Assembly (NCBI GenBank): GCA_905142475.1
Contig: LR990730.1
Span: 2,852,001-2,916,000, forward strand
Source of the DNA: Xanthomonas hydrangeae
GTDB taxonomy: Bacteria; Pseudomonadota; Gammaproteobacteria; Xanthomonadales; Xanthomonadaceae
Reading direction: 5' to 3'
DNA length: 64,000 nucleotides
Shown piece after piece: positions 3 to 46,402 of the stretch (positions within the stretch are counted from its first letter, which is position 1; each line of letters begins with the position of its first letter). The position numbers and the translations under genes are program-made. The notes beneath the pieces are model-generated. The model did no database searches, was not told where the DNA came from, and saw only the letters and a program-made list of their open reading frames with translations.

Positions 3-188
3 GCCACCGACTTCCAGGAGCCGGTGGAGGTCACCATGGACACCGCCCTGGCTGACTTGCCTGAGTGGGATTCGCTCTCAGCGTTGGGGGTAATCGTCAT
101 GTTCGACGTGGATTACGGAAAGGTCATTACCGGCGAAGATCTCAAGAACTGCGCCACCTTAAACGATCTTCACAAACTGCTGGGGTAA
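3..188 (+). CDS. acyl carrier protein, C-terminal part (5' truncated by window edge)
   Basis: The frame is open from the first bases to TAA at 186-188. It encodes the C-terminal two thirds of an acyl-carrier-protein-like domain. The segment PEWDSLSALGVI carries the DSL motif whose serine receives the 4'-phosphopantetheine arm, followed by the acidic helix II/III region. The real start lies upstream of the window, although an internal ATG exists at 36. It ends 4 bp before a FabH-like ketosynthase gene, which suggests a dedicated carrier for a short acyl chain made by this cassette. Identity rests on the DSL context and the neighbour; only about 60 residues are visible. Confidence 0.75.
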   Translation, partial: ATDFQEPVEVTMDTALADLPEWDSLSALGVIVMFDVDYGKVITGEDLKNCATLNDLHKLLG

Positions 189-192
189 CGCC

Positions 193-1230
193 ATGGGACT
201 GTCCACTCTTAGCAATGTCCGTTTTGCGGGCATGGCGAGTTGCGTGCCCAAGCGGATCATTTCCAACCTGACCGATTGCCCGCCGAAGATGCGCTCAGAA
301 CGCGAGCGTCTGGTGCGTAACATCGGCATCGAGTTTCGTCGCATTTGCCCAAGCTGGCAGACATTTTCCGATCTGGCGCTCATCTCCGCGGAAAAGCTGC
401 TTGCAGAGCTGCAATGGGCCAAGGATGAAATCGATGCACTGATTGTCGTAACGCAATCACCCGATTACCCCATCCCGGCCACGGCCATCATCATGCAGCA
501 CCGGCTGCAATTGCCGCAGACCGCTATCGCCTTTGATGTCAATCTCGGCTGCTCCGGCTATCCCTTTGGCCTGCACCTGGTGGGCAGCATGATTGCGGCT
601 GGCACCATCAAAAAAGCGCTTCTGCTGGTCGGCGACCGCTCCGCCACACTTCTGGACCCATTGTTCTCCGACGCGGGCACCGCCACGGCGCTGGAGTTCG
701 ACAAAAATGCACCTCCCATGCATTTCGACCTGAACAGCGACGGTAGCGGCTACCGGGCCATCATGTTGCCCATAGGTGGGCATCGTGAGCCTTACGGACC
801 CCAACATATCTCTCCTACACGTGACGAGAACGGTGTGCTGCACTGGCCAGGTGAACTCATTCTCGATGGCCCGGCCGTGTTGAGTTTCTCGACCCAGCGA
901 GTGCCTCCAGCGGTGGAAAGATTGCTTGAGTATTCTGGTGTTGCTAAGGACAGCGTTGATTTTTTTGTTTTTCATCAGGCCAACAAAATGATCAACGAAA
1001 CCATCCGCAAGAAGTTGGCGCTGCCGACAGAAAAAGTTCCGTCAACCTTGCGGGACTTCGGCAATACCAGTGGAGCTTCCCTGCCCATCACCATGACCGT
1101 CCGTCTGAACGATACGCTGATCAATGCCAGGCACCGACTGTTGCTTGCCGGCTTCGGTATCGGCTTGTCATGGGGTACGGCCATCGTGGACGTCGAGAAC
1201 GCAGCTTTTCCAGCGCTGATCGAAGCATGA
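193..1230 (+). CDS. 3-oxoacyl-ACP synthase III (FabH-like ketosynthase)
   Basis: This 345-residue protein has the thiolase fold of KAS III. The Cys-His-Asn triad is visible: Cys120 in DVNLGCSGYPFG, His261 in FVFHQANKM and Asn291 in FGNTSGAS. Members condense an acyl-CoA with malonyl-ACP to a 3-oxoacyl-ACP. Because it sits between an ACP gene and two SDR reductases and far from a fab operon, it more likely makes a special short acyl group (for example a 3-hydroxyacyl decoration of a sugar) than housekeeping fatty acids. Its stop overlaps the next start as ATGA. Base composition is AT-richer than the flagellar genes downstream. The family call is firm; substrate and product are inferred. Confidence 0.88.
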   Translation: MGLSTLSNVRFAGMASCVPKRIISNLTDCPPKMRSERERLVRNIGIEFRRICPSWQTFSDLALISAEKLLAELQWAKDEIDALIVVTQSPDYPIPATAIIMQHRLQLPQTAIAFDVNLGCSGYPFGLHLVGSMIAAGTIKKALLLVGDRSATLLDPLFSDAGTATALEFDKNAPPMHFDLNSDGSGYRAIMLPIGGHREPYGPQHISPTRDENGVLHWPGELILDGPAVLSFSTQRVPPAVERLLEYSGVAKDSVDFFVFHQANKMINETIRKKLALPTEKVPSTLRDFGNTSGASLPITMTVRLNDTLINARHRLLLAGFGIGLSWGTAIVDVENAAFPALIEA

Positions 1231-1991
1231 ACGCCGAGCGTGATCCGTTTTCCCTAGAAGGCAAGCGCGTCCTGGTGACTGGCGCTTCATCGGGTATTGG
1301 TCGTCAAATTGCAATCACTTGTTCACAGATGGGAGCGAGCGTTGTCATCACCGGACGCAATACCGAGCGCTTGCAAGCCACATTCAACCAACTGGAAGGC
1401 CAAGGCCACACGCAAGTGGTGGCGGACTTGGCGGTACAGGAGGGTATTGACCACGTAGTGGCTGCGAGCGGTGTCATCAACGGCTTGGCGCACGCAGCTG
1501 GCATGTCCAAGCTGACCCCCTTTCGAATGATCGGCCATGCGCACCTGGACGAGACATTTGCAAGCAACACCTATGCACCCATGCTACTGACGCGAGGCCT
1601 GTTGGCGAAGAAGCAGATCGCGCCGGGCGGCTCCCTGCTATTCATTGCCTCAATTGCCTCGCATATCGGCCCGCTGGCGAGCAGCGCATACGCTGCCAGC
1701 AAAAGCGCCCTGCTGGGCATGATGCGCTCACTCGGCATGGAAGTAGCCAAGCAAGGCATGCGCGCCAACTGCATTGCACCGGGTTATGTACGCACTCCCT
1801 TGCTGGATGGCTTGCAGGGAAGCGGCGGCAATATGGACAGCCTGTTTGAATTGACGCCACTTGGCATGGGCGAGCCAGAAGACGTGGCTTATGCAGCAGT
1901 GTTCTATCTTTCCGATGCCAGCCGCTGGATCACGCGCAACCACTTCATTCTTGATGGCGGTTTTTCTGTACCGATGGACATCTACGCATGA
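1227..1991 (+). CDS. short-chain dehydrogenase/reductase (3-oxoacyl-ACP reductase-like)
   Basis: This is a 254-residue classical SDR. The N-terminal cofactor motif is TGASSGIG (about residues 18-25) and the active site YAASK lies near residue 155. The usual C-terminal region with a D-G-G turn follows. I chose the start at 1227 because the ATG overlaps the preceding stop (ATGA); a longer frame reaches back to 1170 but runs inside the ketosynthase gene. The likely role is NAD(P)H reduction of the 3-oxoacyl group made by the neighbouring FabH-like enzyme, or oxidoreduction of a sugar nucleotide. It is a diverged paralogue of the next gene, so the pair may act on successive intermediates. Confidence 0.85.
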
Positions 1992-2722
1992 CCAACGCGG
2001 CGCAACGCGCTTTTTCACTGGATGGCAAGACCATTTTGGTCACAGGTGCTTCATCGGGCATCGGCAGGCAAATCGCCGTTTCCTGCGCGCGGCGTGGGGC
2101 GCGCCTGGTCATCACCGGGCGGGATGCAGAACGCCTGTACGAAACCTACAACTTGTTGAATGGCCAAGGCCACCTCCAAGTGCTGGCCGACCTGACCGAA
2201 GCCGAAGATCGTGAACGACTGGTACAGGGCATTTCCAGCCTAGATGGCTTGGTCCACTGCGCTGGCAGGCAGCGCTTGAGCCCTATCAGGCAGTTGACCG
2301 AGAAGCTCATGACCGATGTCTATGCGGTCAATTTCCTGGCCCCTGTCATGCTCACCCAGCGGCTGTTGCAGGCCAACGCTCTTGCGCCTCAAAGTTCCAT
2401 CGTCTTCATGCTTTCCACTGCGGCCCATATCGGCACACCCGGAGTAGGACCATATTCGGCCATGAAGTCAGCCCTGCTCGGCATCATCCGCTGCCTGTCC
2501 ATGGAGCAGGCCAAACGCAAGATCCGGGTCAATGGCATGTCTCCCTCTGCAGTCGTGACGCCCATCTGGGACACAACCCATCTGGAAGCACAGCAAAAAC
2601 GCCATCCGCTTGGATTGGGCACCCCAGAGGACGTAGCGAACGCTGCGATCTATCTCTTGTCCGATGCCAGCCGCTGGGTAACCGGGACCAGTTTGGTGAT
2701 GGACGGTGGGGCTGTCCTGTGA
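1988..2722 (+). CDS. short-chain dehydrogenase/reductase, second copy
   Basis: This 244-residue classical SDR is related to the gene before it. TGASSGIG is near residue 18 and the catalytic YSAMK motif lies in the middle. It overlaps the previous gene by ATGA and the next by GTGA, so the genes are probably translationally coupled. The N-terminal 60 residues closely resemble those of the upstream SDR, while the substrate loop differs. This suggests tandem duplication followed by a split of function. Likely role: reduction of a 3-oxoacyl or keto-sugar intermediate in the cassette. The substrate is not readable from sequence. Confidence 0.85.
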
Positions 2723-3372
2723 CCTATTCCGTGCTCATCGTCGGCGCGGGCGGCTGGGGCCGGGAGGTCCTTGAGCAAATGCAAGGTGATGTGGCGCATC
2801 GCAAGGAATGGGAAGTCACCGGATTCCTGGACAGCCGCAAGCATATTCTCGATGGCTTTGATGTTGGGGTACCCATCGTCGGTGACCCTTTGACATACGT
2901 GCCGCGTGGCAACGAGGCTTTTGTCTGCGCGCAGGGCGGCCCATTGGAACGGCATAAATACATTCAACCGCTGCTTGCACAGGGGGCCGTGTTCATCCCG
3001 ATCTGCACAGAGGCGCATCTCAGTCGCCGCGTGCGTCTAGGCACGGGTTGCTTTCTCGGCAACCAGGTGCACGTTGGCCCCGATGTGTGGATCGGGGATT
3101 TTGCCAATCTTCTCACTTGGTCGGTAATTGGACACGATGTCCGCATTGGTAATTATGCGCATGTGGGCGCACAGGTTTTCATGGGCGGCGGCGTGCAGAT
3201 AGGCGACTTCGCAATCGTGCACCCGCGTGCCACGCTGGTGCCTGGCGTCAAGGTAGGTGAGCACGCTGTTGTCGGCACCGGTGCGGTCGTGCTGAAGGAT
3301 GTGCCGGCGGGCGCCACGGTGTTTGGCAATCCGGCCAAGATCGTATTCCACAAGAACATCAAGATGGACTGA
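2719..3372 (+). CDS. NeuD/PglD-family sugar acyltransferase
   Basis: This 217-residue protein begins at GTG 2719, which overlaps the SDR stop as GTGA. The N-terminal half is a small Rossmann-like domain ([11 protein letters not shown] near the start), as in the UDP-sugar-binding part of PglD/NeuD. The C-terminal half is a left-handed beta helix of hexapeptide repeats (for example IGDFANL, IGNYAHV, IGDFAIV) that ends in the typical turn before FGNPAK. Such enzymes transfer acetyl or other acyl groups to an amino sugar. Here the donor could be the acyl-ACP made by the upstream genes. The family is firm; donor and acceptor are inferred. Confidence 0.85.
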
Positions 3373-3375
3373 TCC

Positions 3376-4521
3376 ATGCGCTCCAGGATGCACCCCAAGT
3401 ATTACTTGTCGCAGGAAATCTTTGATCGCGAGCAGCGCAGGATCTTCCGCAGGGTCTGGTTGTTCGCAGGACTCAAGACGCTGCTGAAGGACCACAATTG
3501 CTTCATCACTCGCAAGATCGCTGGCATTCCCTTGGTGATCCAGAACTTCCACGGCCAAATCCGTGCGTTCGAGAACGTCTGCCTCCACCGCAGTGCACTG
3601 ATTCAAACCGGTGCTCTCGGTTGCCGGCCTTTGGTATGCCCCTACCACGCCTGGAGTTACGACGAACAAGGCCGGGTAAAGAACATCCCGGACTGCGATG
3701 CGATCTACCACCTGGACAATAGTGAAAAGGCCAACTTGAAGCTGCGCGAATTCTCACTTCGCGCCATCGGCAACCTGTTGTTCGTCAACCTCGATCCAGA
3801 CCCCATGCCAATCGAGGAGCAGTTTTCGGCAGACTTCATCGCCTTGCTGGAAAGTAGTTCCAACGCCTATGACACTGAGGTCATGGTGACCACATGGCAT
3901 GGCCGGTACAACTGGAAGCTGGCCTACGAGAATCTGCGGGACGCCAACCACCCGCGCTTTGTCCATCCCAAGACCCTGGCCAAAAGCGTCAACTTCACTC
4001 CCCAGGTAAACGAGGAACAAGCCAAGGAGTCCATGGAGGCCTTGCAGGACACATCGCCCGCAGCGCTGAGGCGCGAGATGCGCCGCTTCAGTTTCGGCGG
4101 CCCGGAAGCCACCATCCCCAACCTTAAACATTTTGGCTGGCACGCTAAAGTGGAACGCTGGGGCAAGCAGGACGCCTACTTTAACTGGCTTGCCTTCCCG
4201 AATTTGCATATCGCGAGCGCCAACGGGGGCTATTCCTTCACGCTGGAACACCACATCCCCGTCGCACCGGACCGGACCGACCTGGAAATCTATTGGTTTA
4301 GCGCACGCAAGAAACAGCCTTACGGTTCTTCCAGCCAAGTGCTGCTTGCGCAGATGCACGGCAGCAAGGTGGTAGTGGGAGAAGACGTGGACATCATGGA
4401 GCGGGTGCAGGCGGCACTGCATACAGACGCCCCGCTACCCACCCAGGGAGCCTATGAATCCATGAATCGCCTGGTTGAGCGCTGGTACACGGTGCTGATG
4501 GAGACCGAACATGAGATCTAG
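3376..4521 (+). CDS. Rieske non-heme iron oxygenase (alpha-subunit type)
   Basis: This 381-residue protein has an N-terminal Rieske [2Fe-2S] domain with the ligand pair C69-x-H71 (CLH) and C88-P-Y-H91, 16 residues apart. The C-terminal catalytic domain carries D189-x2-H192-x4-H197 (NLRDANHPRFVH), which fits the bridging Asp and mononuclear-iron histidines of ring-hydroxylating oxygenases. No ferredoxin or reductase gene is nearby, so electrons would come from a partner elsewhere. In this acyl-sugar cassette the likely job is hydroxylation, or another oxidation, of the acyl chain or sugar. The start at 3376 is 3 bp after the previous stop; a second ATG at 3388 is possible. It overlaps the next gene by 11 bp. 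Confidence 0.85.
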   Translation: MRSRMHPKYYLSQEIFDREQRRIFRRVWLFAGLKTLLKDHNCFITRKIAGIPLVIQNFHGQIRAFENVCLHRSALIQTGALGCRPLVCPYHAWSYDEQGRVKNIPDCDAIYHLDNSEKANLKLREFSLRAIGNLLFVNLDPDPMPIEEQFSADFIALLESSSNAYDTEVMVTTWHGRYNWKLAYENLRDANHPRFVHPKTLAKSVNFTPQVNEEQAKESMEALQDTSPAALRREMRRFSFGGPEATIPNLKHFGWHAKVERWGKQDAYFNWLAFPNLHIASANGGYSFTLEHHIPVAPDRTDLEIYWFSARKKQPYGSSSQVLLAQMHGSKVVVGEDVDIMERVQAALHTDAPLPTQGAYESMNRLVERWYTVLMETEHEI

Positions 4522-5134
4522 GTGGATCATCGGCGGCAGCGAATACCTCGATCTGGCCTTTCACGCCTGGAAGCACGCGCGTCAGGACGAGACGGTCATC
4601 AGGATCGATGTACCACAAGACGCGGAACACGAATTCGATCTGGACGTGCTGGATGGACTGAATCCGACTGACGGGGCCATGTTCGTGGCTTTTGACGAAC
4701 GCTTCGGCAACTTCAAGCGCATGGAACTGATGCAGGCAGCGATGGAACGTGGCTTCAAGCTCGAGCCCTTCATCCACCCAAGCGCAGCCATCGACTCTGA
4801 CACGGCCATTGGGCTCAACGCATTCGTGGGTGCCAATGCTGTCGTTGGGCACGGGTGCAGGATCGACTACAACACCGTCATCCATGCCGGCACGCACCTC
4901 GGACCCGCATGCCGCGTTAAATCTTCATGCTGGATAGAGAATGGTGTGCAAATCGGCGCGGGCGTCGAGATCGGCAGCAATAGCATCCTGCGAACCGGCG
5001 CCATCGTGCGTGGGGGCGTCAAGGTTGGGCGAAGCTGCGAACTTGGCTGGCCACGTGTCTACTGCGAGGACGTGCCGTCCAAGACCTATTTCCACGCCCG
5101 CTACGACACTCCAATCCATGTTTATGAAGCCTAA
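4511..5134 (+). CDS. hexapeptide-repeat acyltransferase
   Basis: This 207-residue protein has an N-terminal alpha/beta part of about 85 residues that may bind a nucleotide sugar. A left-handed beta-helix domain follows from about residue 85 (IHPSAAI, IGLNAFV, VGHGCRI, IGAGVEI, IGSNSIL). It is the second acyltransferase of the cassette and differs from the NeuD-type one in its N-terminal domain, so the two may acylate different positions. The gene starts inside the end of the Rieske gene. Acceptor and donor are unknown. Confidence 0.75.
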   Translation: MRSRWIIGGSEYLDLAFHAWKHARQDETVIRIDVPQDAEHEFDLDVLDGLNPTDGAMFVAFDERFGNFKRMELMQAAMERGFKLEPFIHPSAAIDSDTAIGLNAFVGANAVVGHGCRIDYNTVIHAGTHLGPACRVKSSCWIENGVQIGAGVEIGSNSILRTGAIVRGGVKVGRSCELGWPRVYCEDVPSKTYFHARYDTPIHVYEA

Positions 5135-5148
5135 GCCGGGGACCAATC

Positions 5149-6366
5149 ATGCAGACCGCTATCCAATTCAAACTAAATATCGACCCGCAGGCATCGGAAG
5201 AGACGTTTCAGGTCGCCGCCGAGGGCCTGACTGGTGATCCGATGTTCGGTATTCCCAAGGACGTTCGCCACCTCATTGCCAAATTTGGCGACGAAGTCAA
5301 GGTGATCGTTTTAGGAACCGGGGGGTTCGGCGCGCACTTGCTGAACCTGAAGCAGGACCGGCACTGCAATGTGATCGCCTCGGTGGACGACTTCCGCTAT
5401 CACTCCGGTGCGCTGTATTACGGCACTCCGATCATCTCGACGGACAGGTTCATCGAACTGGCCAAGTCTGGCGACATCATCGCCCTCAACACGTGCCGAT
5501 ATGACGGACCCAAGCGATTTTTTGACCAGGTCTGCAGGCAGCACGGGATTGCTCATATCAACTTTGAACAGGCCGTTCGCGCTTTCGGTCTACAGGGGCG
5601 TGTAGATTTCCGGGTGGACGATTGGGGAAGGGAGATCGTGCGCAATATTCCCAGGTTTCAGCGCCTGGCAAAACGCTTTTCCGATGCCTACTCGGCACAA
5701 ACCCTGTTCTCTGTCCTCAATTTCCACCTGACCTGTGACCCCGAGTACTACCACGAAATCGAGCGCCCCTACACCACGTTGTACTTCCGCTCCGGCCTGC
5801 TGCAATTCGGTGGCGGAGAAAAGATGGTTGATTGCGGCGCCTCGATTGGCGAGTCGCTCGCAGGCCTGATTGGCGCCACCAAAGGCCAATTCTCGCGTTC
5901 TTGGATGATTGAACCCGATCGGATCAACGTCGGCACACTCAAGAACGTACTACGCCGCTACGAAGGCACGGCTCTGGCGTCCAGAATCAGTCTGCATGAC
6001 TGCGGCGTAGGCGAGACAAAAGGCAGGGTTCCATTCAACCATGAGGGTGGCCACGGCGGCTTCGTCAAGCCTTCGAGTGAGGATTGCGAACCGGCAGACA
6101 TGATCGACGTATGCTGCATCGACGATGTCATCGACGATGCACCCACCTTCATCAAAATGGATATCGAGGGGTCGGAACTTTCGGCACTGAAAGGTGCGCA
6201 GAGTGCGATTGTTCAGTGCAAGCCCAAAATGGCGATCTCCGCCTATCACAGAGCTACCGACCTGCTAGATCTAAGCGATTTCGCCCTATCTCTGAACCCG
6301 GATTACAGGATCGGCCTGCGCCATCACACGCCGGATCGCTGGGATACCTGCCTTTATTTTTATTAA
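5149..6366 (+). CDS. FkbM-family SAM methyltransferase with N-terminal nucleotide-binding domain
   Basis: This 405-residue protein has two parts. Residues about 45-140 form a Rossmann-like domain resembling the PglD/NeuD N-terminus (VIVLGTGGFGAHLL). Residues about 215-400 are an FkbM methyltransferase, with the SAM-site motif VDCGASIGES and the family motif FIKMDIEGSELSAL. FkbM enzymes O-methylate sugars and polyketides. The extra N-terminal domain may hold the nucleotide part of the sugar substrate. It is the eighth gene of the cassette and starts 14 bp after the acyltransferase. Methylation of the flagellin sugar is an inference from the neighbourhood. Confidence 0.82.
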   Translation: MQTAIQFKLNIDPQASEETFQVAAEGLTGDPMFGIPKDVRHLIAKFGDEVKVIVLGTGGFGAHLLNLKQDRHCNVIASVDDFRYHSGALYYGTPIISTDRFIELAKSGDIIALNTCRYDGPKRFFDQVCRQHGIAHINFEQAVRAFGLQGRVDFRVDDWGREIVRNIPRFQRLAKRFSDAYSAQTLFSVLNFHLTCDPEYYHEIERPYTTLYFRSGLLQFGGGEKMVDCGASIGESLAGLIGATKGQFSRSWMIEPDRINVGTLKNVLRRYEGTALASRISLHDCGVGETKGRVPFNHEGGHGGFVKPSSEDCEPADMIDVCCIDDVIDDAPTFIKMDIEGSELSALKGAQSAIVQCKPKMAISAYHRATDLLDLSDFALSLNPDYRIGLRHHTPDRWDTCLYFY

Positions 6367-6381
6367 CGCTCTGCCTTAAAA

Positions 6382-7764
6382 ATGAGCGGATCGATGACTG
6401 ACCCAAGCAAGATTTTCCTTTTCAACTCAGCCCTTCCTGAATCCCTGGAAATGTCGGATTTCCTGAAAGGCATGGGGCCATCCCAAGACAATGTCAGAGG
6501 CCAGAATATAGGAAACGGCTATATCGCCTATGGTTTTTTGAAAGCACTGTTCGGGTGCCCGGTGAAAGTTGACCACATCTCCAACGCACTTGAGGCAAAG
6601 CTTTCCGATCAACTTGCAGAAGAGATCAACCAAAAATACTCGCATCTTGTCTGGACGATGAAGGATGACATCCGGGAGGACTTCGCAGGCCTTCCTATTG
6701 AGAGAATCACGCACTTTCTTGAAAAAATCACGATCCCGATCGTGCCGGTGAGCCTTTGCGCGAACTCATTCAATGGCTACGACCCGAACTTGGCCGAGCG
6801 CCTCAGCCCCAATCAAAAGCGAAACTTCTCCCTTCTCTCTGAAAAATCCAAGCTGATTGCTGTTCGCGGAAATTATTCCGCCGAGATCCTGAATAGCCTT
6901 GGCATAAAGAACGTCAGAGTGATTGGCTGCCCGAGCTACTTTGAGAACGGACCCACCCGGGCTCTGCAAAAAAAGCCGTGGGATGCGGACAAGGTCATCA
7001 CTACGGCCACATTCTTCAATTCCGGGCTGCCGAGGACATCCCATCTGCTGCAGGATGAATTGTATTTCATCAACTTGCTCTATCTTGAAAAAGCACTGCC
7101 ATCGACCCGCAACATCACAGCGCAACCTTTCAATCTCGACGAAATACCCACGTCCTTCCAACTATTGGCCAAGGCCATGGCTGGACGACTGGAATTTTTC
7201 TCTGATTACAGCCGGTGGGCCACGTTCTTCAAAAGCAACGACCATTGCCTCACGATTGGAACCCGACTTCACTCCGGAATTCTCTCGATTAATAGCGGCG
7301 TCCCCGCCATTGTGACCAATCCGGATTCCAGGGCCAGGGAAACTTGCGAATACCTCCGCATCCCTTATGACCCTACCATTCACAGCCGAAGCAACATCCG
7401 TGAAGTTTTCGAGAACCTCGACCTCTCTGAAATGAACAACGCCTACCCGGTTTTGTACAAGGAATTTCTTGATTTTCTCGACGCAGTCGACCTTGTTCCT
7501 TGCACTGTGCCTCATGACAAACCCTGCTTTGAATTTCCGGATCTAAAGAAAAGCACTAGCCCCTCGGTTGCAGCTGAGCTACATGAAGCTTACACCGAAC
7601 TCGTAGAGAATCTAGACCGCGAAGTCGTTGTTCGGAGAGAGCATGGCGGAGAGAGGTCTCGGCGCTTGGTAGATAAATTCCAACTCCTCAGACGGCGCTA
7701 TCCAGGGCTGACGCGCAAAGAGTATTTGGATTATCTCAGCCGATCTACGGGTAAAGCCAAGTGA
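6382..7764 (+). CDS. polysaccharide pyruvyltransferase-family protein
   Basis: This protein has 460 residues from ATG 6382, or 456 from a second ATG at 6394 that has a slightly better ribosome site. Family features are the N-terminal segment GQNIGNGYIAYGFL and the C-terminal motif TIGTRLHSGILSINSGVPAI. Members add pyruvate ketals to sugars or form part of glycan-processing machineries. The last 60 residues are charged and helical and unlike the core. Base use is clearly more AT-rich than the gene after it, and the gene ends by a GTGA overlap with that gene. The reaction is not certain: many family members are of unproven activity. Confidence 0.75.
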   Translation: MSGSMTDPSKIFLFNSALPESLEMSDFLKGMGPSQDNVRGQNIGNGYIAYGFLKALFGCPVKVDHISNALEAKLSDQLAEEINQKYSHLVWTMKDDIREDFAGLPIERITHFLEKITIPIVPVSLCANSFNGYDPNLAERLSPNQKRNFSLLSEKSKLIAVRGNYSAEILNSLGIKNVRVIGCPSYFENGPTRALQKKPWDADKVITTATFFNSGLPRTSHLLQDELYFINLLYLEKALPSTRNITAQPFNLDEIPTSFQLLAKAMAGRLEFFSDYSRWATFFKSNDHCLTIGTRLHSGILSINSGVPAIVTNPDSRARETCEYLRIPYDPTIHSRSNIREVFENLDLSEMNNAYPVLYKEFLDFLDAVDLVPCTVPHDKPCFEFPDLKKSTSPSVAAELHEAYTELVENLDREVVVRREHGGERSRRLVDKFQLLRRRYPGLTRKEYLDYLSRSTGKAK

Positions 7765-10700
7765 AATTGAATCTAGTCAGCATCGTCATGCCGACCTACA
7801 AGCCGCGCTATGTCGCGCAGGCGCTGGACAGCGTGCTGGCCCAGACCTACACGGCGCTGGAGCTGGTGATCTGCGACGACAATGGCGATGGCGCGATTGA
7901 ATCCATCCTGGCGCCGCGCCTGGCGTCCACCGCCTTCCCAATCCGCTACCACCGCAATCCGACGCGACTGGGCGAACTCGGCAGCACCATCAAGGGCATC
8001 GGCCTGGCGCAAGGCGAGTACGTCAAGTTCCTGCACGACGACGATGTGCTGGCGCCGGACTGTGTTGAGCAGCTGGTGGCAGCGATCGAGCGCAACCCCG
8101 GCACCGCACTGGCGTCCTCGCGCCGGCTGCGCATCGACGATGACGGTGCGCCGTTGCCCGACATCCTGGCCACCAGCTTTCCGTTCGGCGAGGACGTGCT
8201 GATCGATGGGCCGGAGCTGGTGTCGTTCCTGGCCGACCACGCCATCAACTTCATCGGCGAGCCGAGTTGCGTGCTTGCACGGCGCGCCGACCTGGTGGCG
8301 CTGGGTGGCGAGCTGATGATGTTGAATGGCAAGGCCATCCACTGGGTCGGCGACCTGGCGATCTACGTCAAGCTGCTGCGTCGCGGCAACCTGGCCTTGC
8401 TGTCCAGCCCGCTCACGCACTTTCGCGTGTCAAGCGCGCAGTTCAGTCAGGCCGGCCGCGATCAGGTGGGGGTCGGCGACCAGGGCCACGAAGACCTGCG
8501 CCATGGCATCCGCCAACTCGGCTGGCGGCGCGAGAGCGGCGACAACCGCCAGGTGCGCGTCGCCCCGCTCAGCCCGCACAAGGCGCGGGTATTCAAGTCG
8601 GTGGATCTGGTCAATGCGCTGATGCAAAGCGCCGGCATGGCCGAGCGGGTGTCGCCGGCCACCTGGCTGGGCGTGCGGCATCCGAGCGAGGTCCAACGCG
8701 CCTTGATCGATGCGCGCCTGCAGGCCCACGCGCGCGGTCCGCGGATCGCAGTGATGGTGGTCGACAGCGACGGCGATGCGGCAGCGGTGGCCGCCACCCA
8801 GTCCAGCCTGGCGGCGGTGGCGTGTTATCCGAATCAGCAGAGCTGGGTACTCAGCAGCTCGCCGCAGCAGGCTGCCGAGCACGGCGAGCGCGGTGTGTTG
8901 ATCGGCCTAGACGGGCTGTTGCCCACACTCAATCGGACCATCGCCGCACAACAGTCCATCGACTGGGTGCTGCTTGTCCAGGCCGGCAGCCTGTTCACCG
9001 CCAGCGGCCTGCTGATGCTGGCGCTGGAGATGCTCGCGCTGCCGGACGCGTGTCAGGCCGTTTACGCCGATGAAGTGGTCGCGCTGGATGGCGGCCAGCT
9101 GGGGCTGGCGATGCGGCCGGCGCTGTATCTGGACATGCTGTTGAGCGCGCCGTCGACGATGTCGCGGCATTGGCTGTTCCGGCACCAAACGCTAGTGGCC
9201 GATGGCGGCTTTGCAACCGAAACGAGCGACGCCTTCGAACTGGATTACCAGCTTGGGCTGGTCGAGCGTTACGGCCTGGCCTGCATCCAGCACATCGCCG
9301 AACCCTTGCTGGTGGCATCGGCCACCACGCGGCATGGCGACGAGGACGAGCAGCGCGCCATCAGCCGCCATCTTGCCGCGCGCGGGTACGTGGACGCGGT
9401 GGTGAGCAGCACCGGCCCCGGCCGGCATGCGGTGGATTACCAGCATGCACAGCAGCCGCTGGTCAGCATCCTGGTGTTGGTGGATGGACGCCTTGCGCAG
9501 CTGCAACGCTGCCTGGAAAGCGTGCTTGCCAACACCGGCTACCCACACTACGAGCTGCTGTTGCTGGATCGCGGCGACAGCGCCGAGCCGGCGTTGCGCG
9601 ACTGGCTGGCGGGCATCGACAACCTTGGCCTGCAGCAGATCCGCGTGCTGCGCTTCGATGGTGCGCCCTCGCGCGAGGCGGCCTGCAATGCGGCGGCCGG
9701 GCAGGCTCGTGGGGAGCTGCTGTTGTGGCTGGCAGCGGGCGCCGCGGCGATCAAGGCCGATTGGCTGGCGCAGCTGCTCAACCACGCGCTGCGTCCGGAG
9801 GTCGGCGCGGTGGCCGGCAAGCTGCTGCGCGGCGACGGCACCGTGCATCACGCCGGCTTGTTGCTGGGCCTGGGCGCACCGGCAGCACGCGCCTTCGAAG
9901 GTGCGGCGTTCGACGAATCGGGCTATCTGCAGCGCCTGCAGCTGGATCAGAACTACAGCGCGCTCAGTGGCGAATGCCTGATGCTGCCGCGCCAGCTGTT
10001 CCTGGACGCCGGCGGCTTTGCACAGGAACCGGCATTGGCGCAATGGAGCGATGTCGATCTGTGCCTGCGCCTGCAGCAGGCCGGCTATCTCAATGTCTAC
10101 GCCGCGCGCGCACAGCTGCTGATCGACCCGCCCGACACAACACCCGCCACTGCACTCGACGAAGAAGCGATGTATGCGCGTTGGCTGCCGGTGATGGCCA
10201 ATGACCCGGCCTACAACCCGGGTTTTTCGCTGGATCCCGGCGCCGGCTTCAAACTGGCCGATCCGCGCGCCAGCTGGCGGCCGTTGCAGTCGTGGCGACC
10301 GCTGCCGCGCGTATTGGCGCTACCGGCCGATATCGAAGGGTGTGGGCATTACCGGGTGATCCAGCCATTGCGCGCCCTGCGCGAAGCCGGCATGGTCGAA
10401 GGCGTGCTGTTCAACGGCTATCTGGAGATCAGCGAGCTGGCGCGCCAGGATCCCGACGTGGTGATCCTGCAACGCCAGGTCGGCGAGCCGCGACTGGAAG
10501 CGATGCGGCGGATGAAGGCGCTGTCACGTGCATTCAAGGTCTACGAGCTGGACGACTACCTGCCCAACCTGCCGCTGAAGAACGCCCATCGCGAGCACAT
10601 GCCCAAGGACATCCTCAAGACCGTGCGGCGCGGGCTGGGCATGGTGGACCGCTTCGTGGTGTCCACTCCGGCGCTGGCCGAGGCCTTCGCCGGGCTGCAT

Positions 10701-11297
10701 AGCGACATCCGCGTGGCTGAAAACCGTCTGCCGCCGCATTGGTGGGAGCAGCTGCCGGCACGGAGCGAACGTGAGGAACGCCAGGGCGGCAAGCCGCGTA
10801 TCGGCTGGGCCGGCGGTGCCAGCCATACCGGCGACCTGGAGCTGATTGCCGACGTGGTGAAGGAGCTCGCCGATGAGGTCGAATGGGTGTTCATGGGCAT
10901 GTACCCGTTCGCGTTGCGCCAGCACATCCATCAGTTCCAGCCCGGCGTGCCGATCGATCACTATCCCGCCGCGCTGGCCGCGCTGGACCTGGATCTGGCG
11001 CTGGCACCGGTGGAGCAGAACCTGTTCAATGAGTGCAAGAGCAATCTGCGCCTGCTCGAGTACGGCGCCTGCGGCTACCCGGTGATCGCCAGCGACGTGC
11101 GCTGCTATCAGGGCAACCTGCCGGTGACGCTGGTGAAGAACCGTTACCGCGACTGGATCGGCGCGATCCGCGAGCACCTGGCCGACCCAGCCGCTGCGGT
11201 GGCAAAGGGCGCGGCATTGCGTGAAGTGGTGCGCCGCGACTGGATGTTGACCGGCAGCAATCTCGATCGGTGGAGTAAGGCGTGGTTGCCGGATTAG
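7761..11297 (+). CDS. large multi-domain glycosyltransferase, likely flagellin glycosyltransferase
   Basis: This 1178-residue protein starts at GTG 7761. Four modules can be seen. Residues 1-250 are a GT2 (GT-A) domain with IVMPTYKPR and the DXD-like HDDDV. Residues about 330-500 are a degenerate GT-A-like domain. Residues about 565-790 are a second GT2 domain (SILVLVDGR, then the late SDVDLCLRLQQAGY segment). Residues about 850-1170 are a GT-B domain (ADIEGCGHYRVIQPL, then NLRLLEYGACGYPVIAS). There is no signal peptide or membrane segment, which fits a cytoplasmic enzyme that builds a short glycan on flagellin before export. High-GC codon use matches the flagellar genes, not the cassette it overlaps. 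The target is inferred from position. Confidence 0.82.
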   Translation: MKLNLVSIVMPTYKPRYVAQALDSVLAQTYTALELVICDDNGDGAIESILAPRLASTAFPIRYHRNPTRLGELGSTIKGIGLAQGEYVKFLHDDDVLAPDCVEQLVAAIERNPGTALASSRRLRIDDDGAPLPDILATSFPFGEDVLIDGPELVSFLADHAINFIGEPSCVLARRADLVALGGELMMLNGKAIHWVGDLAIYVKLLRRGNLALLSSPLTHFRVSSAQFSQAGRDQVGVGDQGHEDLRHGIRQLGWRRESGDNRQVRVAPLSPHKARVFKSVDLVNALMQSAGMAERVSPATWLGVRHPSEVQRALIDARLQAHARGPRIAVMVVDSDGDAAAVAATQSSLAAVACYPNQQSWVLSSSPQQAAEHGERGVLIGLDGLLPTLNRTIAAQQSIDWVLLVQAGSLFTASGLLMLALEMLALPDACQAVYADEVVALDGGQLGLAMRPALYLDMLLSAPSTMSRHWLFRHQTLVADGGFATETSDAFELDYQLGLVERYGLACIQHIAEPLLVASATTRHGDEDEQRAISRHLAARGYVDAVVSSTGPGRHAVDYQHAQQPLVSILVLVDGRLAQLQRCLESVLANTGYPHYELLLLDRGDSAEPALRDWLAGIDNLGLQQIRVLRFDGAPSREAACNAAAGQARGELLLWLAAGAAAIKADWLAQLLNHALRPEVGAVAGKLLRGDGTVHHAGLLLGLGAPAARAFEGAAFDESGYLQRLQLDQNYSALSGECLMLPRQLFLDAGGFAQEPALAQWSDVDLCLRLQQAGYLNVYAARAQLLIDPPDTTPATALDEEAMYARWLPVMANDPAYNPGFSLDPGAGFKLADPRASWRPLQSWRPLPRVLALPADIEGCGHYRVIQPLRALREAGMVEGVLFNGYLEISELARQDPDVVILQRQVGEPRLEAMRRMKALSRAFKVYELDDYLPNLPLKNAHREHMPKDILKTVRRGLGMVDRFVVSTPALAEAFAGLHSDIRVAENRLPPHWWEQLPARSEREERQGGKPRIGWAGGASHTGDLELIADVVKELADEVEWVFMGMYPFALRQHIHQFQPGVPIDHYPAALAALDLDLALAPVEQNLFNECKSNLRLLEYGACGYPVIASDVRCYQGNLPVTLVKNRYRDWIGAIREHLADPAAAVAKGAALREVVRRDWMLTGSNLDRWSKAWLPD

Positions 11298-11454: not shown

Positions 11455-11550
11455 GGTGCCCTCGCCGCCTGCGGGACACGCCGCAAGTACGTCCATGTAG
11501 GCTCGGTGGCGGCATCCATGCCGCCACACGGTCCCGCAAGCGGCGAGGAC
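11455..11550 (-). repeat. diverged copy of the 135-bp palindromic repeat, opposite orientation
   Basis: On the minus strand this segment follows the same layout as the two copies downstream. A CCGC/GCGG-rich outer arm flanks the conserved core CGCAAGTACGTCC, and an inner hairpin GGCGGCATCCATGCCGCC follows. Outer arms CTCGCCGC and GCGGCGAG can pair. Confidence 0.65.
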
Positions 11551-11678
11551 ACCGCACCAGAGAGTTTGCAGGCTGCTTTGTTGAGAGCCTGCTCGTTGCT
11601 CGGCCTTCGTTGGGAATCGGTGCGCGGTTATCAGAACAACGCACCTCATGCCCGCTTGCAACCATGCACACCGACCGT

Positions 11679-11813
11679 CTCGACTGGTCCTTGCCCGCTC
11701 ACCGTCGCGGGACCTTACGCGGCATGGATGCCGCGTAAGAGCTTACAAGGACGTACTTGCAGCGTGTCCCGCGATGGTGAGCGGGCAAGGGCCTTGCAGC
11801 CAAGCCGCAGATC
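11679..11813 (+). repeat. 135-bp palindromic repeat, copy 1
   Basis: The outer arms TTGCCCGCTCACC and GGTGAGCGGGCAA can pair, and an inner hairpin TTACGCGGCATGGATGCCGC with its partner GCGTAA lies within. Compared with copy 2 it differs at two positions that I can see. It has the layout of a REP/MITE-like intergenic element, and no transposase is near. Confidence 0.85.
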
Positions 11814-11887
11814 CCGCCGCTCCGCAACTGATCTATCCGCACTGCGGACGCCCTCAAGACACAGCGCATACCGCGCACACCAACCAC

Positions 11888-12022
11888 CTCGACTGGTCCT
11901 TGCCCGCTCACCGTCGCGGGACCTTACGCGGCATGGATGCCGCGTAAGAACTTACAAGGACGTACTTGCAGCGTGTCCCGCGATGGTGAGCGGGCAAGGG
12001 CCCTGCAGCCAAGCCGCAGATC
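11888..12022 (+). repeat. 135-bp palindromic repeat, copy 2
   Basis: This is a direct repeat of 11679-11813 with the same outer and inner inverted arms. The 74 bp that separate the copies are unrelated to the element. The near identity suggests recent duplication or gene conversion. Confidence 0.85.
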
Positions 12023-42151: not shown

Positions 42152-42155
42152 GCTT

Positions 42156-42207
42156 CGGGATTGGGGATTGGGGATTGGGGAATCGGGAATCGGGAATCGG
42201 GAATCGG
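42156..42207 (+). repeat. short-unit array (GGGGATT x 3-4, then GGGAATC x 4)
   Basis: This is a tandem array with a 7-base period just after the cheA stop. It is the reverse complement type of the arrays at 22773 and 32101. Confidence 0.9.
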
Positions 42208-42236
42208 CAAGACGATCTGGTCTGCCTGATTTGACG

Positions 42237-42268
42237 ACAACGGCCGCGTACTGCGGCCGTTGTTGTTT
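42237..42268 (+). terminator. intrinsic terminator after cheA
   Basis: An 11-bp perfect stem (ACAACGGCCGC with GCGGCCGTTGT) over a 5-base loop is followed by a T-rich stretch. Confidence 0.85.
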
Positions 42269-42346
42269 CACTACCAGCATCGCTGCCAATCTATGCCGCT
42301 ACGCGCGCAGGCATGCGGGAGATGGTTTGGCGACGGTCAGGCTGCC

Positions 42347-42386
42347 GTGGAAGTGAACCTGGAACCGTTATTTAGAACCGTTATTT
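42347..42386 (+). repeat. left border repeat: two GAACCGTTATTT units
   Basis: The segment GTGGAAGTG is followed by ACCTGGAACCGTTATTT and, one base later, by a second GAACCGTTATTT. The same sequence in opposite orientation closes the accessory island at 48391-48438. Confidence 0.85.
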
Positions 42387-42423
42387 ACAGCCAATATTTA
42401 AGCACCTTAAACCAGCCCGGGTT

Positions 42424-43533
42424 TTAGAAAAACGGGGGAACATGCGAGCCAGCTGGCGCAAGCATCCCAAGCGCGATATCGTCAACTCCAAAACCCGATG
42501 TTTTATTGATAAACGCGATTGCGGCGACGCGCGTGTCGGCGTTGAAGCCCATGAAGCTACGAACGCCGCCGCCATTTCCATTGCTCCAAGCTATGCTCTG
42601 GCCAGCCGGGTGGACCTTCCGCCAGCCGATACCCATTCTGGTATCGGTGTTATCGCCGGGCCTATCTACAGTCAGCATCATTGAAGCCGCCCGCGAGAGG
42701 GGACCGCTTTCTTTGTTTGTCCAAAGTGTCATGAATTTCGACAGGTCCTTTACCGTCGAAAAAAGGCCGCCTGCCGGCGCTAACGCACCAAATTCCCAGG
42801 GTTGAGCCGAGTGGAAGTCCGCATCGTAACCCCAAATTTCCCGGTGATGCATCGCCGTTGATGGAGTAAGCGTAGTTTCGTCCATACGAAGCGGTTCAAG
42901 AATGCGAGCTCGCAAGAGGTCAGCATATGTTTTGCCAAGGCGCTGTGACAACGCGTAACCCAATAACGCGTAGTCAAAATTCGAGTATTCAAAACTCGAT
43001 CCCGGTAAGCGCGTGAGATGGACACGACCTAAATCAGCACAAAGATCGCTCTCGGTGTAGCCGGCGTAGGGGTTGTCTTGACTGAGGCCGGTGCGACTGG
43101 ATGGCCGAAGTGGTAGCCCACTCGTATGAGTGGCTAAATCGAGAAGCGTGATCTCATTCCCGTCGAAGGTGGCGGGAGGAACTGCAATGTACATTGATAG
43201 TGGATCGACGAGATTCACTTCACCCCGCTGAACGCAATCAGCAAGTAATAGTGCCGTAAATATCTTGGTTAGCGAGGCGATCTGAAATACTGACCGATCA
43301 TTCGGCTGTTGGAGTTTACCTAGGCCAACCGTTCCGTAGTGGAAAGTCTTCAATTCGCCTGCGCGTACCACCCCCAGTACGGCCCCGGTGCCCTGCTTTT
43401 CCTCGGCTACGCGACGGCGAAGGGCCGAGGACACGCTATCAGCTTCAATTCCGGGTTTGGCAAAGCTACGCATCGGCAGGGCCATGGATAATGCCGCAGC
43501 CAAAACAGTGCGGCGTTTAATCGAGGCGACCAT
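42424..43533 (-). CDS. serine hydrolase, class C beta-lactamase/esterase family
   Basis: This 369-residue protein has an N-terminal export signal that starts KRRTVLAAALSMALP, which resembles a Tat signal (twin arginine). The family motifs SxxK (S87-L-T-K90) and YxN (Y183-S-N185) are present. The third motif, often HNGGTGGF, reads SNGNGGGV at 318-325, so the usual His is replaced. Such proteins range from AmpC beta-lactamases to esterases and D-amino peptidases; this one lies outside the canonical AmpC length pattern, so the substrate is open. AGGAG lies six bases before the start. No regulator gene is adjacent. Codon use is lower in GC than the flagellar genes. Confidence 0.82.
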   Translation of the reverse strand: MVASIKRRTVLAAALSMALPMRSFAKPGIEADSVSSALRRRVAEEKQGTGAVLGVVRAGELKTFHYGTVGLGKLQQPNDRSVFQIASLTKIFTALLLADCVQRGEVNLVDPLSMYIAVPPATFDGNEITLLDLATHTSGLPLRPSSRTGLSQDNPYAGYTESDLCADLGRVHLTRLPGSSFEYSNFDYALLGYALSQRLGKTYADLLRARILEPLRMDETTLTPSTAMHHREIWGYDADFHSAQPWEFGALAPAGGLFSTVKDLSKFMTLWTNKESGPLSRAASMMLTVDRPGDNTDTRMGIGWRKVHPAGQSIAWSNGNGGGVRSFMGFNADTRVAAIAFINKTSGFGVDDIALGMLAPAGSHVPPFF

Positions 43534-43786
43534 TTTTACTCCTCACTCCAACATCAGCGTTTGAGCCATGCAGAGGGTATCACCCTGTTCGGACGGATGC
43601 TTCCTGTCCGCATACGCGACGTTGCATGGTGTCGCCACCTCGCAAGACAGAAATCTCTCGCCGGTTTAGTGATACGGCTAAGCGGCGGGAATCGCTTTAG
43701 CTGCTTCGAAACCAGCCTTTCCGCATTCCACCAATCCCGGCCATTCAACAATGCAGCTATTTGTCGAATAACGGGTCCAAACCTCA

Positions 43787-43820
43787 GGGTCAGGTTGACT
43801 TCCTTAAGTGAATCTGACCC
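43787..43820. repeat. imperfect palindrome GGGTCAG...CTGACCC
   Basis: The two 15-base arms pair with two mismatches and a CCTT loop. Elements of this look are common as dispersed REP-like remnants in gammaproteobacteria. Confidence 0.6.
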
Positions 43821-43830
43821 CGTTCTTTTG

Positions 43831-43853
43831 AAGTGACCCTGGAACCGTTATTT
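43831..43853 (+). repeat. internal copy of the GGAACCGTTATTT unit
   Basis: AAGTGACCCTGGAACCGTTATTT matches the left border of the island apart from one or two bases. Confidence 0.8.
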
Positions 43854-43887
43854 CAGGTCAATCGCAAGGCGTCTGGCAGCCGTCGCA

Positions 43888-44304
43888 TCATCGCCGCCTG
43901 CTGCGCGCCTTGGCCGGCACCTCCACCGGCGGCAACACCTCCATCAACAACTGCCCCGCGCTGGCGGTGATGCGCAGCTTGGTGCCGATGGCAAAGCCCA
44001 GTTGTTCCAGCCATAGGCCGCTGAGGCGGACGTGGGGCACGTGCTGGTCGCCGGCGTGGTCGTGGGCGCCGGGGTAGTGGGTGTAGCTGACGGTGCATTG
44101 GCGCGGGCGGCGGGCGCGGCGGGGTGCGCGTAGCGTGCCGGGGCCTTGCGGGGAGGCGTCCGGGTCGGGCGGCAGCATCGGTGGCAGCTTGGTGCGGTCG
44201 GGTTCCACAACAACCCACTGCACCCGCTTGGGCGGCGCGGGGCGCGCACGTTTGCGGGTGGGCCGTGCGCTGGCAGATGCCGTGGGTGGGCGGCGGCGTG
44301 TCAT
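43888..44304 (-). CDS. SymE-like toxin (type I toxin-antitoxin family)
   Basis: This 138-residue protein has a basic Pro/Arg-rich first half. The C-terminal half resembles the SymE/AbrB-like fold (VSYTHYPG, then VPHVRLSGLWLEQLGFAIGT and KLRITASAGQLLMEVLPP). SymE of Escherichia coli is an SOS-induced, RNA-cleaving toxin held in check by an antisense RNA. I start it at the ATG ending at 44304 because GGAGG lies just upstream and the ATG overlaps the stop of the preceding small gene (ATGA). A longer frame runs to 44385. Family membership is good; toxicity is inferred. Confidence 0.75.
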   Translation of the reverse strand: MTRRRPPTASASARPTRKRARPAPPKRVQWVVVEPDRTKLPPMLPPDPDASPQGPGTLRAPRRARRPRQCTVSYTHYPGAHDHAGDQHVPHVRLSGLWLEQLGFAIGTKLRITASAGQLLMEVLPPVEVPAKARSRRR

Positions 44305-44570
44305 GGCGCCTCCGGGTGGTGGCGGGTGATGGATGCGGCGACGCACTGCTGCAACGGCACGGCCCTGCTTGCCGATACGCGGCACCAGGTGTGCGGCAAT
44401 ACACCGAGCTGGCGGCTCAGCGGATGCGCGGTATGGTCTCTCGCCTGCTCAATAGCTGTGCGTGCGTCGAGCCTGCGCAGCACATCGCCCATATCCCACC
44501 GCAGGCGGTGAGCGGAAGCTGGCAACAGATCAACCGGCACAGATGCCGGCATGGATGGTGCGGTAGACAT
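44301..44570 (-). CDS. small protein cotranscribed with SymE-like toxin
   Basis: This 89-residue protein of unknown function is encoded right before the SymE-like gene, with a 4-bp overlap. AGGAGGG lies six bases before the ATG, a strong ribosome site. It contains the stretch LLPASAHRLRWDMGDVLRRLDARTAI and two or three cysteines in the C-terminal part. The coupling suggests a partner, regulator or translational leader for the toxin. A frame extension to 44747 covers the structured leader and is unlikely to be translated. Confidence 0.6.
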   Translation of the reverse strand: MSTAPSMPASVPVDLLPASAHRLRWDMGDVLRRLDARTAIEQARDHTAHPLSRQLGVLPHTWCRVSASRAVPLQQCVAASITRHHPEAP

Positions 44571-44621
44571 GGCAACGCCCTCCTGGAACAACCCAAGAAC
44601 CGCCGCCAACGGCGACGGGAT

Positions 44622-44696
44622 GTCGGGAGGTTCGAAACCGCACGTAGCCGGCGGGCGTATTCCCCTTGCGGGTGTTGTATTAGCCGCCCTCCCGAC
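44622..44696 (-). promoter_or_regulatory. structured 75-nt leader upstream of the SymE-like operon
   Basis: The ends GTCGGGAGG and CCTCCCGAC are perfect inverted repeats that enclose smaller complementary pieces (CGGCGGGCG with CGCCC). It lies about 50 bp before the small gene. It could fold as an mRNA leader on the minus strand or act as an antisense RNA from the plus strand, in the style of SymR or ptaRNA1. The direction of transcription cannot be told from sequence. Confidence 0.55.
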
Positions 44697-44736
44697 GCAG
44701 GCATTGCGTCGGCTTGTACCTGCAGGATGCAGGCAC

Positions 44737-44766: not shown

Positions 44767-44802
44767 ACCGCTACGTGAGGAGTTTCGACGCTCCTTGGGC
44801 TT

Positions 44803-46362: not shown

Positions 46363-46402
46363 ATCCTTTCTTTATAGCACTGACAATCCCGGCACCTGAT
46401 AA

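What the first reader, a model, noticed from the sequence alone, without database searches (positions are those of the whole stretch)
3..7764. Self-contained acyl-sugar cassette beside the flagellar genes: ACP, KAS III, two reductases, Rieske oxygenase, two acyltransferases, methyltransferase
Seen: ten tightly packed genes, most overlapping, AT-richer than the flagellar genes. Known: KAS III + ACP + SDR make 3-hydroxyacyl chains, NeuD/PglD and hexapeptide enzymes acylate amino sugars, FkbM enzymes O-methylate, and Rieske enzymes hydroxylate. Flagellins of related plant pathogens carry modified viosamine with a 3-hydroxybutyryl-type group. Inference: this set makes a new acylated flagellin glycan, with the Rieske oxygenase adding a step I do not recall in the described viosamine pathway.
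Basis: partly seen in the sequence, partly recalled or inferred. Interest (0 to 1): 0.75.

Follow-up and report, generated by a model that had tools for sequence, protein, structure and literature searches.

The report
Flagellin sugar cassette with Rieske oxygenase
A Xanthomonas gene cassette beside the flagellar genes most likely builds an unusual acylated sugar for decorating flagellin, and it carries a conserved oxygenase paired with an acyltransferase-like partner whose job in sugar making is not known.

Summary
The genes are real and correctly placed. The window lies in a Xanthomonas chromosome. It resembles the P. syringae viosamine island, and a ten-gene island in the X. oryzae flagellar cluster (gigX1-10) is already reported to determine flagellin glycosylation. 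"Flagellin glycan" is well supported but not new.

The open part is the Rieske gene. In 35 genus genomes, the 31 that keep the KAS III-SDR-PglD core have a Rieske gene; the 4 without the core lack it. The order ACP-KAS III-SDR-(SDR)-PglD-Rieske-hexapeptide recurs in beta- and gammaproteobacteria. Two Rieske lineages (A, B) occur singly or together. In lineage B the partner gene starts 11 nt inside the Rieske gene in 42 of 50 rows. The partner is PglD-like but conserves no catalytic histidine, so "two acyltransferases" is doubtful.

Best guess: the Rieske enzyme hydroxylates the N-acyl group of dTDP-viosamine, as CMAH does with CMP-sialic acid. Substrate and product are untested. New variant of a known kind.

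The parts
3..188 (+). acyl carrier protein (5' end 34 bases before the window; 73 aa in all)
   Evidence: Ser of the DSL motif (Ser36) in 60 of 60 aligned relatives
193..1230 (+). KAS III (vioS-like)
   Evidence: Pfam ACP_syn_III and ACP_syn_III_C; Cys120, His261, Asn291 in 62 of 62
1227..1991 (+). short-chain dehydrogenase/reductase SDR1
   Evidence: Pfam adh_short_C2; nucleotide-binding and YxxxK motifs in 53 of 55 SDR1 rows
1988..2722 (+). short-chain dehydrogenase/reductase SDR2
   Evidence: Pfam adh_short_C2; motifs in 58 of 63 SDR2 rows
2719..3372 (+). PglD/NeuD/VioB-type N-acyltransferase
   Evidence: TIGR03570 over its cut-off; solved relatives perosamine N-acetyltransferase and VioB; His139 in 51 of 61, Tyr in 10
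3376..4521 (+). Rieske oxygenase, lineage B
   Evidence: Pfam Rieske + Ring_hydroxyl_A; metal ligands intact in 74 of 79 rows, window included; model pLDDT 94.7; fold matches
4511..5134 (+). Hex2, PglD-like hexapeptide protein coupled to the Rieske gene by an 11-nt overlap
   Evidence: Pfam Hexapep; profile match to PglD E 4e-28; overlap conserved in 42 of 50 lineage-B rows
5149..6366 (+). FkbM-family methyltransferase
   Evidence: Pfam Methyltransf_21, TIGR01444 over its cut-off
6382..7764 (+). polysaccharide pyruvyl-transferase-like protein
   Evidence: Pfam PS_pyruv_trans E 4.2e-15
7761..11297 (+). 1178-aa GT2 glycosyltransferase, VioT-like in size and place
   Evidence: Pfam Glycos_transf_2, two stretches; full-length matches in 35 of 35 genus genomes, 34 of them at 85% identity or more, G014 at 49%

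Best explanation
This is a viosamine-type flagellin glycosylation island of a Xanthomonas species (that part alone I put near 0.88). RmlB (elsewhere) and the VioA-type aminotransferase just upstream give dTDP-viosamine (4-amino-4,6-dideoxyglucose). The dedicated ACP, KAS III and SDR(s) make a short 3-hydroxyacyl chain, probably 3-hydroxybutyryl, which the PglD/VioB-type enzyme puts on the 4-amino group. The Rieske oxygenase, working with its translationally coupled PglD-like partner Hex2, then hydroxylates that N-acyl group on the sugar nucleotide, in the way the enzyme CMAH turns CMP-Neu5Ac into CMP-Neu5Gc. Hex2 would hold the nucleotide sugar rather than transfer an acyl group. FkbM (O-methyl) and the pyruvyl-transferase-like protein tailor the sugar, and the large glycosyltransferase places it on the flagellin glycan. 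Shown here: the genes, their motifs, the predicted fold of the Rieske protein, the position and the conservation. Inferred: every reaction, the flagellin target in this strain, the Rieske substrate and the role of Hex2. The confidence given is for the whole chain.
For: Gene set and order; RmlB elsewhere; slot between fleQ and fliE in the genus; Rieske present in all 31 genus islands with the KAS III-SDR-PglD core and absent from the 4 without it; same order in 31 of 35 further loci found by their Rieske gene; intact metal sites in 74 of 79 rows; Rieske fold with nearest solved relatives being monooxygenases of small aliphatic substrates; 11-nt gene overlap with Hex in 42 of 50 lineage-B rows; Hex derived from the PglD family without a conserved His; P. 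syringae mutants show that acylated viosamine is transferred to flagellin rhamnose; CMAH precedent.
Against: No chemistry was tested. The nearest solved folds are N-demethylases of quaternary amines at about 20% identity, which fixes no substrate. Loci L056 and L119 hold a Rieske-Hex pair without the acyl genes nearby. No reductase is encoded in the cassette. Loss of the His does not prove loss of acyl transfer, and 10 of 61 PglD rows have Tyr at that place too. The 31-to-4 split comes from one genus with shared ancestry. Window proteins were not compared directly with P. syringae or gigX sequences. Homology to CMAH was not tested; it is a functional analogy.
Confidence: 0.4

Rival explanations
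1. Hydroxylate, then acylate: the Rieske enzyme makes a new hydroxyl group and Hex2, still an active acyltransferase, esterifies it with a second acyl group. Tandem A and B pairs would add two such groups.
For: Hex2 matches LpxD- and PerB-type acyltransferases and always sits next to the Rieske gene where the contig allows in the genus (30 of 31); the dedicated ACP could serve both acyltransferases.
Against: No His column in the Hex family exceeds 32 of 69 rows; at the PglD His139 position only 6 of 69 have His.
Confidence: 0.2
2. The Rieske enzyme acts on another place: a ring carbon of the sugar, an O- or N-methyl group (demethylation), or the acyl-ACP before transfer.
For: Nearest solved folds are demethylases (stachydrine demethylase, CntA); methyltransferase genes are frequent in the islands.
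Against: The Rieske gene stays with the acyl core while the FkbM and other tail genes vary; this argues weakly against a role tied to one methyl group.
Confidence: 0.22
3. The cassette serves lipopolysaccharide, exopolysaccharide or a secreted metabolite and merely sits beside the flagellar genes.
For: Several loci outside Xanthomonas have no Xanthomonas-like flagellar gene within the stretch examined.
Against: Same flagellar slot in the 31 genus islands; published flagellin role of homologous islands; fliC-like genes beside the module in L114, L115 and L121; GT41-TPR neighbours in 5 of 6 other loci probed.
Confidence: 0.07

Closest known systems
Viosamine island of Pseudomonas syringae pv. 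tabaci 6605 (vioA, vioM, vioT, vioS, vioB, vioR, acp; PMC3927599)
   Same: By annotation: aminotransferase, ACP, KAS III, reductase, VioB-type acyltransferase, a methyltransferase and a very large glycosyltransferase (1,173 aa there, 1,178 aa here), at a flagellar gene cluster.
   Different: The published island has no Rieske gene, no Hex2, no second SDR and no pyruvyl-transferase-like gene; the gene order differs; the methyltransferase here is FkbM type and much longer (405 against 241 aa). No direct sequence comparison was made.
gigX1-10 island of Xanthomonas oryzae pv. oryzae (Yu et al. 2018, doi 10.1111/mpp.12543, not held)
   Same: Ten genes in the flagellar cluster under RpoN2/FleQ, needed for flagellin glycosylation (reviews). 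The gene count would fit VioA, ACP, KAS III, two SDRs, PglD, Rieske, Hex, a methyltransferase and the glycosyltransferase (my guess).
   Different: Its gene content could not be read or aligned here; it may already discuss the Rieske gene.
Flagellar region XCV2000-2013 of Xanthomonas strain 85-10 (table in PMC3826837)
   Same: Listed order glycosyltransferase ... Rieske 2Fe-2S family protein, acetyltransferase, two short chain dehydrogenases, 3-oxoacyl-ACP synthase, ACP, aminotransferase, FleQ.
   Different: A gene list with presence/absence only; the passages seen give no function.
Stachydrine demethylase (3vca, 4qur) and carnitine monooxygenase CntA (6y9c)
   Different: About 20% identity; their substrates are quaternary amines; here the gene sits in a sugar cassette.
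CMAH, CMP-Neu5Ac hydroxylase
   Same: Works like the proposed step: hydroxylates the N-acyl group of a nucleotide-activated amino sugar (PMC8227644, passages).
   Different: Homology not tested; a different sugar, nucleotide and acyl chain; that CMAH is a Rieske-type protein is recalled (the paper's one use of the word was not shown to me in that sense).

Membership tests
Viosamine-type flagellin glycosylation island | VioA-type aminotransferase with the cassette | tested here: met
   DegT family E 1e-99, ends 98 bases before the window; best solved relatives include 4-aminotransferases of the perosamine type. Regiochemistry not tested.
Viosamine-type flagellin glycosylation island | dedicated ACP, KAS III and reductase | tested here: met
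Viosamine-type flagellin glycosylation island | VioB/PglD-type acyltransferase | tested here: met
   TIGR03570 over cut-off; VioB 7txp and PerB 4ea7 among the best solved relatives
Viosamine-type flagellin glycosylation island | large VioT-type glycosyltransferase at the flagellar cluster | tested here: inconclusive
   A 1178-aa GT2 protein precedes fliE, but it was not compared with the VioT sequence itself.
Viosamine-type flagellin glycosylation island | flagellin carries the acylated viosamine | not testable with these tools
   needs mass spectrometry
gigX1-10 island | same genes in the same order | not tested
Rieske non-haem iron oxygenase, alpha subunit | CxH...CxxH cluster ligands and His-His-Asp iron site | tested here: met
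   window residues C69 H71 C88 H91 D189 H192 H197 D337
Rieske non-haem iron oxygenase, alpha subunit | fold | tested here: met
PglD/NeuD N-acyltransferase (for Hex2) | family profile score | tested here: not met
   TIGR03570 at 85.5 bits against a cut-off of 160.8; relationship clear by profile comparison
PglD/NeuD N-acyltransferase (for Hex2) | His at the catalytic position | tested here: not met
   Pro132 in the window; His in 6 of 69 rows at that column
CMAH-like N-acyl hydroxylase | hydroxylates the N-acyl group of a sugar nucleotide | not testable with these tools
   proposed by analogy only

The most novel reading that the evidence does not exclude
A previously undescribed enzyme pair: a trimeric Rieske oxygenase coupled to a retired, PglD-derived left-handed beta-helix trimer that holds dTDP-N-acyl-viosamine, together hydroxylating the acyl group. 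Two versions of the pair (A and B) are exchanged or stacked at one locus to change the flagellin glycan, a bacterial counterpart of the Neu5Ac/Neu5Gc switch.
Probability: 0.3. Interest if true: 0.78.

Novelty: new variant of a known kind. Interest (0 to 1): 0.52.

Why it matters
Flagellin O-glycans are thought to shield flagellin from release of its immunogenic peptides in plants (review PMC8364246, passages read). A Rieske step would add a new chemical layer to these glycans, conserved through most of the Xanthomonas genomes examined and found with the same neighbours in Pseudomonas and Acidovorax-type bacteria. It would also be a bacterial case of an iron-sulphur oxygenase in acyl-sugar assembly, and of an acyltransferase fold turned into an oxygenase partner. 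The natural A-only, B-only and A+B islands at one locus make a ready comparison set.

Tried and rejected
Fused SDR1-SDR2 proteins seemed present in L058, L059 and L064; one search showed that the first half was an out-of-frame extension, so this was dropped. A first AlphaFold2 model from 12 sequences was poor (pLDDT 63.1) and was replaced by one from 85 sequences (pLDDT 94.7). A sigma-54-like pattern in L032 gave 15 matches against 8.87 expected (6 of 200 shuffles reached 15), none in the fleQ-VioA gap: uninformative. A class-wide search for the KAS III matched only the window's own genome (1 of 369 at E <= 1e-70), so a wide test for acyl cores without a Rieske gene could not be built from it. 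The idea that the aminotransferase type separates sugar from acyl roles was dropped: the second type is DesI-like, which (recalled) makes the same 4-amino sugar.

Literature. Searches in the held library: (2 of 2 papers listed; 20 of 152; 20 of 90; 12 of 12; 20 of 26; 15 of 19; 11 of 11; 15 of 21; 5 of 5), 98 (12 of 54). No listed title, abstract start or passage that I opened assigns the Rieske gene a function in a flagellin glycan. Unlisted rows were not seen and the gigX paper is not held, so this does not show that it is unpublished.

Tree caveats. Of 79 rows, L112_6085 is a false pick of an FkbM neighbour; L124_11453, L130_9508 and L133_9115 have very long branches and their place is unsure. 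They stayed in the tree and in the counts, and were left out of the alignment for the second model.
Full report
Where it is. The window is bases 2852001-2916000 of contig C1 in a 5.58-Mb genome. The nearest named relative of its Rieske gene is in Xanthomonas sp. Leaf131, at 99%, and an sRNA-Xcc1 match fits Xanthomonas. I fetched the stretch upstream. It holds flagellin, fliD, rpoN, fleQ and then a DegT/DnrJ/EryC1 aminotransferase that ends 98 bases before window base 1.

What is in the cassette. In order: VioA-type aminotransferase, ACP, KAS III, SDR1, SDR2, PglD/VioB-type acyltransferase, Rieske oxygenase, Hex2 (second hexapeptide protein), FkbM methyltransferase, pyruvyl-transferase-like protein, then a 1178-aa GT2 glycosyltransferase and fliE-fliF. 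Five of the nine junctions from ACP to the glycosyltransferase overlap. G+C is 0.504-0.595 in the window's cassette genes and 0.671 in the glycosyltransferase. Catalytic residues are kept across relatives: ACP Ser36 in 60 of 60 rows, KAS III Cys120/His261/Asn291 in 62 of 62, SDR motifs in 53 of 55 and 58 of 63, PglD His139 in 51 of 61 with Tyr in the other 10. RmlB, which would supply the sugar precursor, scores over its cut-off at C1:4416001-4416996. I did not search for RmlA.

What it works like. The P. syringae pv. tabaci viosamine island has seven genes: vioA, vioM, vioT, vioS, vioB, vioR and acp. Mutants and mass spectra showed a terminal viosamine with an N-(3-hydroxybutyryl) and a 2-O-methyl group (PMC3927599: abstract, part 1 of 3 of section 4, section 7 and passages read). 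Counterparts of all seven, by annotation, are here; I made no direct sequence comparison. Two reviews state that gigX1-10 of X. oryzae determine flagellin glycosylation, shown by MALDI-TOF, and are controlled by RpoN2/FleQ (PMC6859632 and PMC8657755, passages read). The original paper is not held. Reference lists name a further X. oryzae acetyltransferase needed for flagellin glycosylation (PXO_00987; title only). A figure legend in PMC7280030 puts vioA next to fleQ in X. campestris (passage). A table in PMC3826837 lists XCV2000-2013 in the same order with a 'Rieske 2Fe-2S family protein' in the flagellar region (passages). So the flagellin role is expected and the gene list is in print.

The Rieske gene in the genus. 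One search covered 100 genomes, 35 of them of the genus, the window's own included. 24 of the 35 have the window's type (lineage B, 70% identity or more), 7 have only a type about 34% identical (lineage A), one of the 24 (G034) has both, and 4 have neither. I fetched the slot in all 35 and mapped it. In 31 the KAS III-SDR-PglD core and a Rieske gene are both present. Thirty of these have the ACP too; in L036 a gap has taken rpoN, fleQ, VioA and ACP. In the other 4 (L080-L083) both core and Rieske are missing, while a glycosyltransferase relative and at least part of VioA remain. Hex follows the Rieske gene in 30 of the 31; in L065 the contig ends first. The right part of the island (FkbM, pyruvyl-transferase-like and other genes) varies. 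So the Rieske gene travels with the acyl core rather than with the variable tail. One genus shares ancestry, so these are far fewer than 31 independent events.

Further loci. A scan of genome contigs, capped at the best 80 of 582 candidates, gave 79 loci. I examined L084-L133 (50 of the 79): 17 repeat genomes already counted; the other 33, with L056 and L064, make 35 further loci, six of them also from bacteria named Xanthomonas or their close kin. 31 of these 35 have ACP, KAS III, SDR and PglD beside the Rieske gene; L056, L119, L129 and L131 do not. The loci were found by their Rieske gene, so this is no test of co-occurrence, but the recurring order is informative. L134-L162 (29 loci) were not examined for context. 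Hosts include Pseudoxanthomonas, Pseudomonas, Oxalicibacterium, Variovorax, Pseudacidovorax, Methylobacillus, Massilia, Acidovorax/Paracidovorax, Methylomonas and Bordetella. In the eight loci with clear A and B genes on one strand (L040, L107, L109, L114, L115, L116, L118, L124) A precedes B; in L103 and L104 A lies on the other strand. L098, L131 and L133 have fragmentary or weak second matches. A tree of 79 rows sets 48 rows, nearly all B, apart (100/82) from 28 A rows (87/88, weak); four rows are not to be trusted. The aminotransferase is of VioA type in some loci and DesI-like in others, below the DesI cut-off.

Target. Flagellar genes flank the module in Xanthomonas and Pseudoxanthomonas, and fliC-like genes adjoin it in L114, L115 and L121. 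For six loci without such genes I chose one or two large neighbours each: five (L099, L105, L109, L116, L118) have a GT41-TPR protein, a type known from protein O-glycosylation (recalled); the one L107 neighbour had no hit. This favours a protein target over LPS.

Hex2. A profile comparison links Hex (69 rows) to PglD (61 rows), E 4e-28. PglD His139 aligns to Hex column 132, where His occurs in 6 of 69 and the window has Pro. In a separate alignment no column has His in more than 32 of 69 rows, so the conclusion does not hang on one register. In one search the same position reads His, Asn and Ala in three deposited perosamine acetyltransferase chains, so others have probed it; its loss here is suggestive, not proof. 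In lineage B the Hex start lies 11 nt inside the Rieske stop in 42 of 50 rows; five rows had no Hex called and three had other spacings. Lineage A shows overlaps of 37 or 4 nt in most rows, with uncertain starts. Rieske alpha3 oxygenases and beta-helix acyltransferases are both three-fold symmetric trimers (recalled), which makes a 3:3 complex a natural but untested idea.

Mechanism. I propose that the pair hydroxylates the N-acyl group of the activated sugar. The precedent is CMAH, which hydroxylates the methyl group of the N-acetyl moiety (PMC8227644, passages read). Support is circumstantial: the Rieske gene goes with the acyl genes, and its partner derives from the enzyme that handles the acylated sugar. 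Against it: the closest folds are demethylases, and two loci have the pair without the core.

Verdict.

Noticed in passing
L036:2559-4336 (same record as L084, Xanthomonas arboricola pv. juglandis CFBP 2528): A shortened fliD runs straight into a shortened KAS III; rpoN, fleQ, VioA and ACP are missing in between. Described only.
   Followed up: no
L080:9502-13425 (G007:C5): In the slot where other species have the acyl cassette, VioA is cut short and an unrelated large ORF scores to Pfam TAL-effector repeats; possibly a contig misjoin in a 410-contig draft. Described only.
   Followed up: no
window 11471-12022: Between the glycosyltransferase and fliE: two 95%-alike copies of a 153-nt unit (11661-11813, 11870-12022) and 54-nt inverted arms at 11471-11524.
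   Followed up: no
window 42155-48428: AT-richer stretch (G+C down to about 0.52) with a PF00144 beta-lactamase-family protein (42424-43533 -), an integrase-core protein (47263-48117 +) and an sRNA-Xcc1 match (44614-44696 -); short repeats containing GAACCGTTATTT and its reverse complement lie at 42362-42387 and 48373-48428, perhaps the ends of an inserted element.
   Followed up: no
window 55058-55351: In-frame-length tandem repeat, period 81, 3.6 copies at 95% match.
   Followed up: no
L056:8079-9846 and L119:8001-9768: A lineage-B Rieske-Hex pair with the 11-nt overlap but with no acyl genes or Xanthomonas-like flagellar genes found nearby; these genomes also carry a lineage-A island at the flagellar slot (L064, L128).
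   Followed up: partly
L034 (G030:C18:643866-644042): A short, stop-containing remnant of a second glycosyltransferase copy upstream of the intact one.
   Followed up: no
L061, L062, L063, L121, L127, L130: Lineage-A islands with a single SDR gene instead of two, which may tell which reductase step is optional.
   Followed up: no
L098 and L131 (Candidatus Burkholderia verschuerenii): The module looks partly decayed: fragmentary Rieske and Hex matches and an Asn for the last iron-ligand Asp. Described only.
   Followed up: no
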